Assembly: GCA_002715265.1 (NCBI GenBank)
Contig: PAYS01000009.1
Location: 37,511 to 73,450 of the forward strand
DNA length: 35,940 bases
Source of the DNA: Candidatus Pelagibacterales bacterium
GTDB lineage: Bacteria > Pseudomonadota > Alphaproteobacteria > TMED109
Direction: 5' to 3'
Shown: in pieces, positions 15,947-27,137 of the stretch
Position numbering within the stretch: the stretch's first letter is position 1
How the letters are laid out: the number at the start of each line of letters is the position of its first letter
The notes under the pieces: model-generated
The model's database searches: none
Seen by the model: only the letters and a program-made list of their open reading frames with translations
What the model was told of the DNA's origin: nothing
Program-made: the position numbers and the translations under genes

Positions 15947-16543
15947 TTAATTTATCCTAGTTCTTTGTACTTCAAATTGAGACTTTACTTCACTTAAATT
16001 ACCATTTGTAGAAAAAGAATAAAAGTATTGTTTTTTATCAAATTCTTTTACATAAACTAAAACTCCATTATCTTTATTTAATTGATCATATATATTTTTT
16101 GAAATTACATCACAGCATGAATCTATATATATAGCATCATAAGGAGCAGATTCTATCCAACCTTCTTTTCCATCACCAAGTTTTGAAACTATTCTATTAT
16201 TAATATTTTTAAAGATCTTATTAGTAAAATCAAAAGCAATTTCATCTATTTCAATTGTATAAACTCTATCATAAATTGTTGACAGTATATATGTTTGCCA
16301 GCCAGATCCCGTACCTATTTCAAGTACAGTTTTGGTATTATGATTGTTTGACAATCCTAAATGTATCATCTTTGCAATTTCTGAAGTTTTAGATGCAAAA
16401 ATATTTTCAAATATCTCAATATTTATGTCTTCATCAGCAAGACCAGCAAACTTAAAAGGTAAAAAATTTGAACGCGAAAGAAATGATATAGCTTGGTAAA
16501 TTCTATCATCTATTATACCAGCCTTTCGCAGCATTAAATGCAT
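15947..16543 (-). CDS. pcm: protein-L-isoaspartate O-methyltransferase family protein (diverged)
   Basis: By fold and context a Pcm homologue, which would methylate isoaspartyl residues in damaged proteins. The 198 residues show the N-terminal GIIDDRIYQAI and SNFLPF blocks and the SAM-binding VLEIGTGSGWQT (73-84). Two regions depart from the family. The substrate loop usually written GQTISQP reads IFASKTS (48-54), and the usual ITAA...IP stretch after motif I is YIDSCCDVI. Activity on isoaspartate is therefore uncertain; another protein methyltransferase role is possible. The gene lies between surE and the LysM/LytM gene. The start at 16543 has only a weak AGAG upstream, and a second ATG follows three codons later. 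Confidence 0.8.
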   Translation of the reverse strand: MHLMLRKAGIIDDRIYQAISFLSRSNFLPFKFAGLADEDINIEIFENIFASKTSEIAKMIHLGLSNNHNTKTVLEIGTGSGWQTYILSTIYDRVYTIEIDEIAFDFTNKIFKNINNRIVSKLGDGKEGWIESAPYDAIYIDSCCDVISKNIYDQLNKDNGVLVYVKEFDKKQYFYSFSTNGNLSEVKSQFEVQRTRIN

Positions 16544-16565
16544 TTTAAGAACTCTATCATCTAAA

Positions 16566-17339
16566 TTATTTACTATTATTCTCGTCCCATATATTTTTTA
16601 AATAATTCTTATCTGTCATATCTAAACAAAGCGGAGTTAAAGAAATATAATTATTTTCTAATGCCCAAATATCTGTATTAGGTTCAAGATTTACTTTAGA
16701 CCTATCTGTTGTTAACCAATAGTATGGAGTTCCTTTTGAATCTTTTCTATATAAAAATTTACCCATAGGTTTTCTTCTAGCAAGTTTTGTATATATTGTA
16801 CCTTTAATATCATTACTAGAAATATTAGGAATATTTATATTTATTATCATGTCTTTATTTTTTATAAAGCTCTCAATAAAATCTGGAATAAATTCCTCAA
16901 CCCCAGACCAGTCATCTTTATCATTATGCTGTGGCCGATTCTTAGATATTGCAATAGATTTTATTCCTGAAAAAGCACCTTCAAGAGCTGCACCTACTGT
17001 TCCTGAATATGATACATCATCGCCTATATTTTCTCCTATATTTACTCCAGAAATAAGAAGATCGGGCTTTTTATTTTTTAAAATTTCTGACAATGCAATC
17101 ATTACGCAATCAGTAGGAGATCCATCACAAGAATATAATTTTTCTCTTATCTTATACAATCTAATAGGCCTAGATAAAGTTATTGAGTGGCCAAACCCAG
17201 AACAATTTTTTGTTGGAGCTACAACAATATAATTTGAAGTTATATTGTTTACTATTTTAAGAATTACTTCTAAACCTTTCGAATCAACTCCATCGTCATT
17301 TGTAATTAAAATTAGTGGCTCAGTATTCTTATTACTCAT
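16566..17339 (-). CDS. surE: 5'-nucleotidase SurE
   Basis: Metal-dependent phosphatase acting on nucleoside 5'- and 3'-monophosphates, associated with stress and stationary-phase survival. The 257 residues include the N-terminal ILITNDDGVDS, with metal ligands Asp15 and Asp16, Ser47 in NCSGFGHS, and Asn100 in LLISGVNIGENIGDD. CDGSPTDCV (71-79) and YSGTVGAALEG are further signatures. The ATG follows the serS stop with no gap, so it is coupled to serS. The order serS-surE-pcm-M23 is standard in alphaproteobacteria. Confidence 0.97.
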   Translation of the reverse strand: MSNKNTEPLILITNDDGVDSKGLEVILKIVNNITSNYIVVAPTKNCSGFGHSITLSRPIRLYKIREKLYSCDGSPTDCVMIALSEILKNKKPDLLISGVNIGENIGDDVSYSGTVGAALEGAFSGIKSIAISKNRPQHNDKDDWSGVEEFIPDFIESFIKNKDMIININIPNISSNDIKGTIYTKLARRKPMGKFLYRKDSKGTPYYWLTTDRSKVNLEPNTDIWALENNYISLTPLCLDMTDKNYLKNIWDENNSK

Positions 17340-25570: not shown

Positions 25571-26611
25571 TTAAATAAATTTCCAGTTGATACCAATATT
25601 AGAAGATAAAATTTTATTTATATCTGCTATAATATCTTTTTTTTCACCAAACTCATTAATAGATAGCTCATTAAAAGCTTTTAGCCATTTATCTAAAATA
25701 CTCTGTTTTATATATGGAGAAAATTCTAAAACTTCTTCTATTTCGCTTTCTTCTCCTGAACAATGCAAAATTAAGTCATATCCTGCACTAGTAATACTAT
25801 TTATTTTATCTTTAATAGATCCAGATAAGGCTTTCATATTTATATCATCAGTCATTAGAATACCCTCATATTTAATACTATTTCGTATATATTCGTAAGC
25901 TTTTCTAGAAATGCTGATCGGATAAGAGTCATCTATTTCTTTATAAATAATATGGGCAGTCATAGCTAGAGGCATATTAGATAATTGTTTAAAAGGAAGA
26001 AAATCGCTTTTCTGAAGAATTGATAATGAATCCTTTACTATTGGTAATTCTTTGTGGCTATCAATATTGCTTCTACCATGACCAGGAATGTGTTTAATAA
26101 CAGGAACTACGCCCTGACTAATTAATCCCTTGCATGCATAATCGCCTAATATTGTAACTAATATTGGATCATTTGAAAATGCTCTATCCCCAATAACATC
26201 GTGAGTATCAATAGACAAAACATCTAAACATGGAGCGCAATTTACATTAATACCAATATCTCTTAATTCTTTACCAATCAATGAATAATTAAGTTGAACT
26301 GCTTTTTTTGCGTCATTTAGGTTTTGATTAGCAATTTTACCAAATAAATTAACAGGCGGATAGTTTAAAAAATCTGGACCAGTTAACCTTTGAACCCGCC
26401 CTCCTTCTTGATCTATAAGTATTGGACATTCCCATCCCATCAAATCATTAATTTCTGATATTAAATCCTGAAGCATAAAATAAGATTTATAATTTCGTGA
26501 AAATAATATAAACCCAAACGGATTATTTCTTTTTACTATATTTTTTTCATTTTGGGAAAGACGTTTTCCAGATATGCCTATTATAGTAGATTTTATAAAA
26601 TTATTTAAAAT
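25571..26611 (-). CDS. nagZ: beta-N-acetylhexosaminidase NagZ, probable ATT start
   Basis: Glycoside hydrolase family 3 enzyme that removes GlcNAc from anhydromuropeptides during cell-wall recycling. Catalytic blocks are intact: IDQEGGRVQRL (about 66-76), KHIPGHGRSNIDSH (about 173-186, with the general acid/base His) and MTDDINMKA with nucleophile Asp near 255. The first ATG (ending at 26476) would remove the first beta strand and helix of the barrel. The same frame stays open upstream and encodes STIIGISGKRLS and PFGFILFSRN, the expected NagZ N-terminus. No ATG, GTG or TTG exists there. The best candidate is ATT at 26611-26609, one base past the preceding stop and nine bases after GAGG, giving 346 residues, the normal length. 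An ATA start or a sequencing error remains possible. Confidence 0.9.
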   Translation of the reverse strand: MLNNFIKSTIIGISGKRLSQNEKNIVKRNNPFGFILFSRNYKSYFMLQDLISEINDLMGWECPILIDQEGGRVQRLTGPDFLNYPPVNLFGKIANQNLNDAKKAVQLNYSLIGKELRDIGINVNCAPCLDVLSIDTHDVIGDRAFSNDPILVTILGDYACKGLISQGVVPVIKHIPGHGRSNIDSHKELPIVKDSLSILQKSDFLPFKQLSNMPLAMTAHIIYKEIDDSYPISISRKAYEYIRNSIKYEGILMTDDINMKALSGSIKDKINSITSAGYDLILHCSGEESEIEEVLEFSPYIKQSILDKWLKAFNELSINEFGEKKDIIADINKILSSNIGINWKFI

Positions 26612-26612
26612 T

Positions 26613-27137
26613 TTACTTTTCCTCTGAAATTACACAACTATTTTTATCAAAATTAAAATATTCACAAATCTCAAAAACTTCATTTAAATTATTTATAGGT
26701 CCGATGCGAAGTCTAAAAAAAATACCTTTATTTTCTATTTCAGCTTCAGTTATAGAATAATTTAAATTATTTAAAAAAATATCATTTGATTTTTTTAACT
26801 CATTAATTTTTTCATCAGCAATTTTATAATTTTTATAAGACGCCAATTGTATATAAAATTTTATAATAGAAGAATTAATAACAGATTTATTCTCAGTTTC
26901 TTCTAAATTAATTTCGTTTTGTGGTAGCAACCTCTCTCTAGTAACTTCATATATATTTAAATTCTCTCCATCAAACTGTTGTCCTTTAAGGTTTTCAGGT
27001 ATAGTTTTGTAATTATTATTTAAACTCTTTATGTGAGCCACATCATTATTGTTATCAAAAAAAGTATTTATATTATCCTTAAAATAAAATAAGGACGTAA
27101 CAATTATAAGTATCAATAAAATTATTAATTTTACCAT
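26613..27137 (-). CDS. SPOR-domain membrane protein
   Basis: Bitopic envelope protein that probably binds denuded glycan strands at the division site. The 174 residues start with one membrane helix (about 2-19) behind a single Lys, an N-in topology. A polar, Asn-rich linker follows, then a C-terminal SPOR domain (about 92-170) beginning FYIQLASYKNYKIADEKI and ending FFRLRIGPINNLNEV, the two diagnostic strands. It lies between argS and nagZ, its usual alphaproteobacterial position, and its 3' end contains the nagZ ribosome binding site. The specific role among SPOR proteins is unknown. Confidence 0.88.
   Translation of the reverse strand: MVKLIILLILIIVTSLFYFKDNINTFFDNNNDVAHIKSLNNNYKTIPENLKGQQFDGENLNIYEVTRERLLPQNEINLEETENKSVINSSIIKFYIQLASYKNYKIADEKINELKKSNDIFLNNLNYSITEAEIENKGIFFRLRIGPINNLNEVFEICEYFNFDKNSCVISEEK
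26617..26624 (-). promoter_or_regulatory. ribosome binding site deciding the nagZ start
   Basis: GAGGAAAA on the minus strand, inside the last codons of the SPOR gene, sits nine bases (from GAGG) before an in-frame ATT. It is the only good anti-Shine-Dalgarno match near the point where the conserved NagZ protein sequence begins. It is the reason for choosing ATT over the later ATG at 26476. Confidence 0.55.

What the first reader, a model, noticed from the sequence alone, without database searches (positions are those of the whole stretch)
26474..26624. nagZ appears to start at ATT, or at another non-canonical codon
Seen: from the first ATG (26476) the protein lacks its first strand and helix, yet the same frame continues 45 codons upstream without a stop and encodes STIIGISGKRLS and PFGFILFSRN, which fit the NagZ N-terminus. 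No ATG, GTG or TTG occurs there. An ATT at 26611-26609 lies nine bases after GAGG and one base past the upstream stop, giving the normal NagZ length. Known: ATT starts are rare and best known from infC and pcnB, where they limit expression. Inference: NagZ may be kept low or controlled through initiation-factor discrimination.
Basis: partly seen in the sequence, partly recalled or inferred. Interest (0 to 1): 0.55.

Follow-up and report, generated by a model that had tools for sequence, protein, structure and literature searches.

The report
Cell-wall recycling gene starting at ATT
In an uncultured, AT-rich alphaproteobacterium the gene for the cell-wall recycling enzyme NagZ has no ordinary start codon and most likely starts at ATT, as several other genes of the same genome appear to do, so standard annotation would probably cut off the front of these proteins.

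Summary
The nagZ frame is open from 26629 and has no ATG, GTG or TTG before 26476. The codons between ATT (26611) and that ATG encode the normal NagZ N-terminus: residues 8-45 are 47-58% identical to five sister proteins, like the rest (49-58%). Those five sisters use ATG within two codons of this place, and 0 of 90 inspected nagZ hits elsewhere in the class lack a canonical start.

The case is not isolated. In 47.7% of this genome five more genes have a conserved N-terminus without a canonical start: hisC, ppsR, mfd, dciA and a DUF3108 gene. In five of the six a Shine-Dalgarno motif lies 6-9 nt before an ATT; background 2.4%. hisC and mfd lack a canonical start in five sister genomes too. infC starts at ATA after AGGAG. 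An assembly error is therefore unlikely.

AUU starts are known, so nagZ is a new member of a known kind. Low expression or IF3 control of NagZ is inference, and the ATT is not conserved in sisters. The more interesting reading is relaxed start-codon choice in this lineage. Peptide evidence is lacking.

The parts
25571..26611 (-). nagZ coding sequence from ATT to stop, 346 aa, beta-N-acetylhexosaminidase
   Evidence: NCBIfam NF003740 207.9 bits against cut-off 207; Pfam PF00933; sister alignment
26609..26611 (-). ATT, proposed start codon
26621..26624 (-). GAGG, Shine-Dalgarno-like motif, 9 nt before ATT
26613..27137 (-). upstream SPOR-domain gene; its stop 26615-26613 is one base before ATT (possible coupling)
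   Evidence: Pfam PF05036 25.3 bits
26630..26632 (-). in-frame TAA that bounds the nagZ frame upstream
26474..26476 (-). first canonical start codon (ATG) of the frame; too far inside the protein
26594..26596 (-). ATA, alternative near-cognate codon without SD motif in range

Best explanation
nagZ of this AT-rich alphaproteobacterium is an intact gene that starts at AUU (26611). The 30S subunit is placed by the GAGG Shine-Dalgarno sequence, probably helped by ribosomes that end the SPOR gene one base upstream, and the initiator tRNA pairs with AUU through the first two bases. The lineage tolerates such starts: infC (AUA), hisC, ppsR, mfd, dciA and a DUF3108 gene of the same genome are of the same type. 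Shown: absence of a canonical start, coding nature of the 45 codons, position of the SD motif, the sister comparison, the further cases. Inferred: initiation at exactly this AUU, coupling, and a yield below that of AUG.
For: Frame and motif. N-terminal identity to five sisters 47-58%, as in the rest. Sister ATG within two codons of the ATT. Five more genes without canonical start in the sampled 47.7% of the genome; SD 6-9 nt before ATT in 5 of the 6. hisC and mfd lack a canonical start in five sister genomes as well. infC of own, G003, G016 and G008 has AGGAG, 7 nt, ATA. AUU and AUA starts with strong SD are measured facts in S. aureus (PMC13009471, passages read).
Against: No protein or ribosome data. 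The ATT is in one assembly only; no second genome of the genus was in the set searched. A genome-wide count of SD motifs before codons upstream of first canonical starts shows no excess for ATT over control codons. nagZ has a modest SD of four bases.
Confidence: 0.82

Rival explanations
1. Assembly or consensus error: the true codon is ATG or another canonical start and a miscalled base makes it look like ATT.
For: The genome is a draft in 45 contigs with scattered single Ns (1164 in 796,721 bases sampled), so its consensus is not perfect; trmB has a frameshift in an A run.
Against: No N in the window. Six genes share the same anatomy; two of them (hisC, mfd) lack a canonical start in five other assemblies too. 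Independent errors at the start codons of nagZ, dciA and the DUF3108 gene, and nowhere else in these frames, are improbable.
Confidence: 0.07
2. Start at another codon: the ATA at 26596 or the short protein from ATG 26476.
For: AUA is used by infC of this genome; ATG 26476 is a canonical codon.
Against: ATA 26596 has no SD motif in range. The ATG would remove 45 residues that are as conserved as the rest and that align with solved NagZ structures.
Confidence: 0.08
3. The gene is decaying: the start was lost and NagZ is no longer made.
For: Only this genome lacks the start, and near-cognate codons give low yields in other bacteria.
Against: The frame is intact over 346 codons, the N-terminus is as conserved as the rest, and an SD motif stands at a usable distance.
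Confidence: 0.03
4. The AUU is kept by selection so that IF3 can hold NagZ low or adjust it. This can be true together with the best explanation.
For: IF3 represses a GTC start of Streptomyces sigR (PMC5472188, abstract read). S. aureus AUU and AUA starts give about 10% of AUG output, one of them up to 30% in rich medium (PMC13009471, passages). In a cell-free system a higher IF3 level lowered the full-length share for AUU read by anticodon CAU to 31.1% (PMC10158994, passages).
Against: ATG, not ATT, in the five nearest sisters. The other genes of this type (hisC, mfd, dciA) share no obvious regulatory theme, so drift under AT pressure explains them as well.
Confidence: 0.2

Closest known systems
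infC (IF3) and pcnB of Escherichia coli, AUU starts (recalled)
   Same: AUU as start codon; own infC also has a near-cognate start (ATA)
   Different: infC is autoregulated and its near-cognate start recurs in relatives; the nagZ ATT is seen in one genome only
cvfC1 (AUU), ccpN and citZ (AUA), infC (AUA) of Staphylococcus aureus, PMC13009471 (passages read)
   Same: AUU or AUA after a Shine-Dalgarno sequence, several genes in one genome
   Different: shown there by ribosome profiling and reporters, with extended SD sequences; here sequence evidence only, and the nagZ SD motif is four bases
sigR of Streptomyces, GTC start repressed by IF3, PMC5472188 (abstract read)
   Same: non-canonical start in a gene cluster with possible translational coupling
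   Different: regulatory role proven there; there the codon is GTC and it is the downstream gene rsrA that is coupled to sigR
Deinococcus deserti non-canonical starts (Baudet et al. 2010; title seen in a reference list)
   Same: a genome with non-canonical starts
   Different: based on proteomics; the paper is not held, so details were not compared

Membership tests
NagZ, GH3 beta-N-acetylhexosaminidase | match to the curated NagZ model and to GH3 | tested here: met
   NF003740 207.9 bits, cut-off 207, a narrow pass; PF00933 156.2 bits, cut-off 27
NagZ, GH3 beta-N-acetylhexosaminidase | N-terminus of the barrel present | tested here: met
   present only if translation starts upstream of ATG 26476
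gene with near-cognate (AUU) start, infC/cvfC1 type | no ATG, GTG or TTG before the conserved N-terminus | tested here: met
gene with near-cognate (AUU) start, infC/cvfC1 type | Shine-Dalgarno motif at usable distance from AUU | tested here: met
   GAGG, 9 nt
gene with near-cognate (AUU) start, infC/cvfC1 type | near-cognate start conserved among relatives | tested here: not met
   nagZ: ATG in the five nearest sisters. Met or partly met for hisC, mfd and ppsR
gene with near-cognate (AUU) start, infC/cvfC1 type | initiation at AUU seen by peptides or ribosome profiling; discrimination by IF3 | not testable with these tools
   uncultured organism, sequence only

The most novel reading that the evidence does not exclude
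In this uncultured lineage (the window's genus and its nearest relatives) AUU has become an ordinary minor start codon: about 1% of ortholog-tested genes (5 of 442 in this genome), housekeeping ones such as hisC, mfd and dciA among them, start at AUU, mostly with an SD sequence, some kept across genera and some newly arisen where sisters have ATG or TTG. This would reflect relaxed start-codon checking by the ribosome or IF3 in an AT-rich genome.
Probability: 0.35. Interest if true: 0.6.

Novelty: new member of a known kind. Interest (0 to 1): 0.45.

Why it matters
Common gene callers accept only ATG, GTG and TTG (recalled), so such proteins would be truncated or missed in databases. If AUU is a regular minor start in a whole lineage, its genomes are a natural experiment on how strictly ribosomes and IF3 must choose start codons, and on whether such starts arise by AT mutation pressure or are kept to hold expression low. 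hisC, with an AUU start shared by two genera, can be tested directly in a laboratory reporter.

Tried and rejected
Frameshift fusion of the SPOR gene with nagZ: it would need a +1 shift at the SPOR stop, and the sisters have separate genes with their own ATG; rejected. Masking mRNA structure at the start: nothing unusual, z -1.03, 34 of 200 shuffles fold at least as well. Codon-usage score of the stretch: uninformative; homology was used instead. Counting SD motifs before codons upstream of first canonical starts: no excess of ATT over control codons such as TTT and AAT, so the claim rests on the ortholog cases; that scan also missed ppsR because it looked back only 60 codons from the first canonical start. 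The first ortholog comparison was dominated by shadow ORFs and was replaced and then. Initiator tRNA: ARAGORN on the stretches held of own (window not included) and of G008 gave one tRNA-Met(CAT) each; the own one looks like tRNA-Ile2 (judged from recall). Pattern searches gave one false hit and then none in 6 of 6 genomes; inconclusive. IF3: intact; one Lys where the other 15 aligned rows (one of them E. coli from memory) have Arg; a lead only. Control genome G124 (30.5% GC, no N): in 116 pairs with own and 55 with G008 only trmB was left without a canonical start in the aligned part, and it looks like a frameshift in a T run. In G008, besides hisC and mfd, a weakly aligned 339-aa protein lacks one. 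A PCMT-like gene in the window was left undecided. Rows were judged by eye.

Full report
What is there. On the minus strand the genes run argS, a SPOR-domain gene, nagZ, scpA, scpB. The nagZ frame is open from 26629 down to its stop at 25573-25571. Its first ATG, GTG or TTG is ATG 26476. Between the in-frame stop 26632-26630 and that ATG lie 51 codons without a canonical start. The codon ATT at 26611-26609 follows the SPOR stop by one base and GAGG by nine bases.

Are the 45 codons coding? Yes. Against the five nearest sister genes (G016, G003, G023, G008, G002) residues 8-45 are 47, 55, 58, 53 and 50% identical, and the rest 58, 54, 52, 56 and 49%. The five best hits among solved structures align from query residue 8-12 on. 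The NCBIfam model for NagZ matches from residue 9 and just passes its cut-off (207.9 against 207). Codon usage alone does not show it.

What do relatives do? One search covered 61 genomes; 45 had a match. Of the 27 other genomes of the same family 18 had a match, and I read the 5' end in 15: ATG in G016, G003, G023, G008 (genus g4), G002 (g3), G022 (g8), G004 and G017 (g5), and GTG in seven genomes of genus g7. G009, G015 and G026 were not read. In a wider draw 116 of 142 genomes of the class had a match. I inspected 90 hits whose match began near the N-terminus (89 genomes, one of them of the same family) and left the others out; 0 of 90 lacked an in-frame ATG, GTG or TTG. Some of these frames were open to the edge of the stretch, so the test is lenient. 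The ATT start has thus been seen in this genome only. Whether ATT replaced the sister ATG directly or was taken up two codons upstream cannot be told from the alignment.

Is nagZ alone? No. I sampled 796,721 of 1,668,993 bases of this genome and 790,892 bases of the sister G008. They share 442 reciprocal ORF pairs. In 24 own rows and 18 G008 rows the alignment runs eight or more codons beyond the first canonical codon. Judged by eye, most of these rows have a sensible ATG, GTG or TTG start, and a few look like frameshifts or stay undecided. Own genes left without a canonical start are nagZ, hisC, mfd, a DUF3108 gene and dciA: 5 of 442. In G008 they are hisC, mfd and a weakly aligned 339-aa protein. 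ppsR was found by an ORF scan and confirmed by homology. Names rest on Pfam: Kinase-PPPase for ppsR, TRCF and other domains for mfd, DciA, DUF3108, aminotransferase class I/II for hisC (the gene names hisC and ppsR are judged from recall of the families).

The start sites are alike. nagZ: GAGG, 9 nt, ATT. ppsR: AGGAG, 8 nt, ATT. hisC: GGAG, 6 nt, ATT. DUF3108 gene: AAGGA, 8 nt, ATT. dciA: AAGGA, 9 nt, ATT. mfd: no SD motif, ATT as second codon of the open frame. The candidate regions of the six genes hold 19 near-cognate codons. At the background rate of 2.4% (1747 of 73,350 ATT triplets) about 0.5 of them would have an SD motif in range; six have one (five ATT, and the ATA next to the ATT of hisC). 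I set the limits of these regions, so this is a rough figure.

Conservation. hisC lacks a canonical start near its N-terminus in own, G002, G012, G008, G003 and G016 (6 of 6 read in genera g1, g3, g4). SD plus ATT stands in the same column in five of them; G002 has GTT in that column and ATT one codon later. Ten more distant family members read have ATG. mfd lacks a usable start in the same six genomes, and its second codon is ATT in 6 of 6; but in all six the end of an upstream gene in another frame overlaps this ATT, with its stop 5 or 8 nt further on, which may be why the letters are conserved. It also means that mfd, like nagZ, could be reached by ribosomes that end the gene before. ppsR: G012, G003 and G008 have AAGGA, 7 nt, ATA; in G003 a TTG lies further upstream. 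dciA: ATG in 5 of 5 sisters, ATT in own. DUF3108 gene: TTG in G012, G016, G003 and G008, ATT in own. infC: AGGAG, 7 nt, ATA in own, G003, G016 and G008 (G016 also has a TTG further upstream), in keeping with the known near-cognate start of infC.

How it probably works. The SD sequence places the 30S subunit, AUU pairs with the initiator anticodon at two positions, and ribosomes arriving from the SPOR gene next door may help. Near-cognate starts in S. aureus gave about 10% of AUG output, and one AUA start up to 30% in rich medium (PMC13009471, passages read). In a cell-free system more IF3 lowered the full-length share for AUU read by anticodon CAU to 31.1%, while well-paired codons rose to 70-100% (PMC10158994, passages read). 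So NagZ is probably made at a low level; that this serves a purpose is not shown.

Errors. Single Ns are scattered through the own and G008 assemblies but the window has none. A random miscall is a poor explanation for six genes of the same anatomy, two of which lack a canonical start in five other assemblies as well.

Control. In an AT-rich single-contig genome of the class (G124, 30.5% GC, no N in 400,000 bases) only trmB was left without a canonical start among its pairs (116 with own, 55 with G008), and it appears to have a one-base shift in a T run just after an ATG. This control is smaller and more distant than the own/G008 comparison.

Known or new. AUU starts are an established kind (infC and pcnB of E. 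coli recalled). The searches on nagZ with start codon, SAR11 with non-canonical start codon (no paper), alternative starts in AT-rich Alphaproteobacteria and the general ones listed no title on an AUU start of nagZ, hisC, mfd or dciA. I saw listings, plus passages of PMC13009471, PMC3305630 and PMC10158994 and the abstract of PMC5472188; a report may exist elsewhere. nagZ is a new member of a known kind. The recurrence within one lineage is the part worth following.

Noticed in passing
L110:8226 (+) hisC; L109:2255 (+) ppsR; L104:8094 (-) mfd; L239:17582 (-) DUF3108 gene; L225:10651 (-) dciA: Five further genes of the same genome without a canonical start before their conserved N-terminus, with ATT at the expected place; part of the argument above.
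   Followed up: yes
L107, minus strand, about 5475-5405 (trmB): trmB starts at an ATG in one frame and continues in another; the frames meet in a run of ten A. In the control genome G124 trmB seems to have a one-base shift in a T run near its start too. Slippage or error; not decided.
   Followed up: partly
window 15950-16597 (-): PCMT-like gene: alignment to the sister runs 17 codons upstream of its first ATG, without a canonical codon there. An ATG start is still possible; undecided.
   Followed up: partly
Whether it bears on start choice is unknown.
   Followed up: no
own and G008 stretches (L104-L123, L223-L262, L299-L318): Single scattered Ns (1164 in 796,721 own bases, 6653 in 790,892 of G008, 0 in 400,000 of G124), in places spaced by multiples of three, as if polymorphic sites had been masked. 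None in the window.
   Followed up: no
G008:C2 near 131466 (-), in L305: A 339-aa protein of the sister G008 without a canonical start in the first 99 or more codons of its aligned part; AGGA lies 9 nt before an ATT.
   Followed up: no
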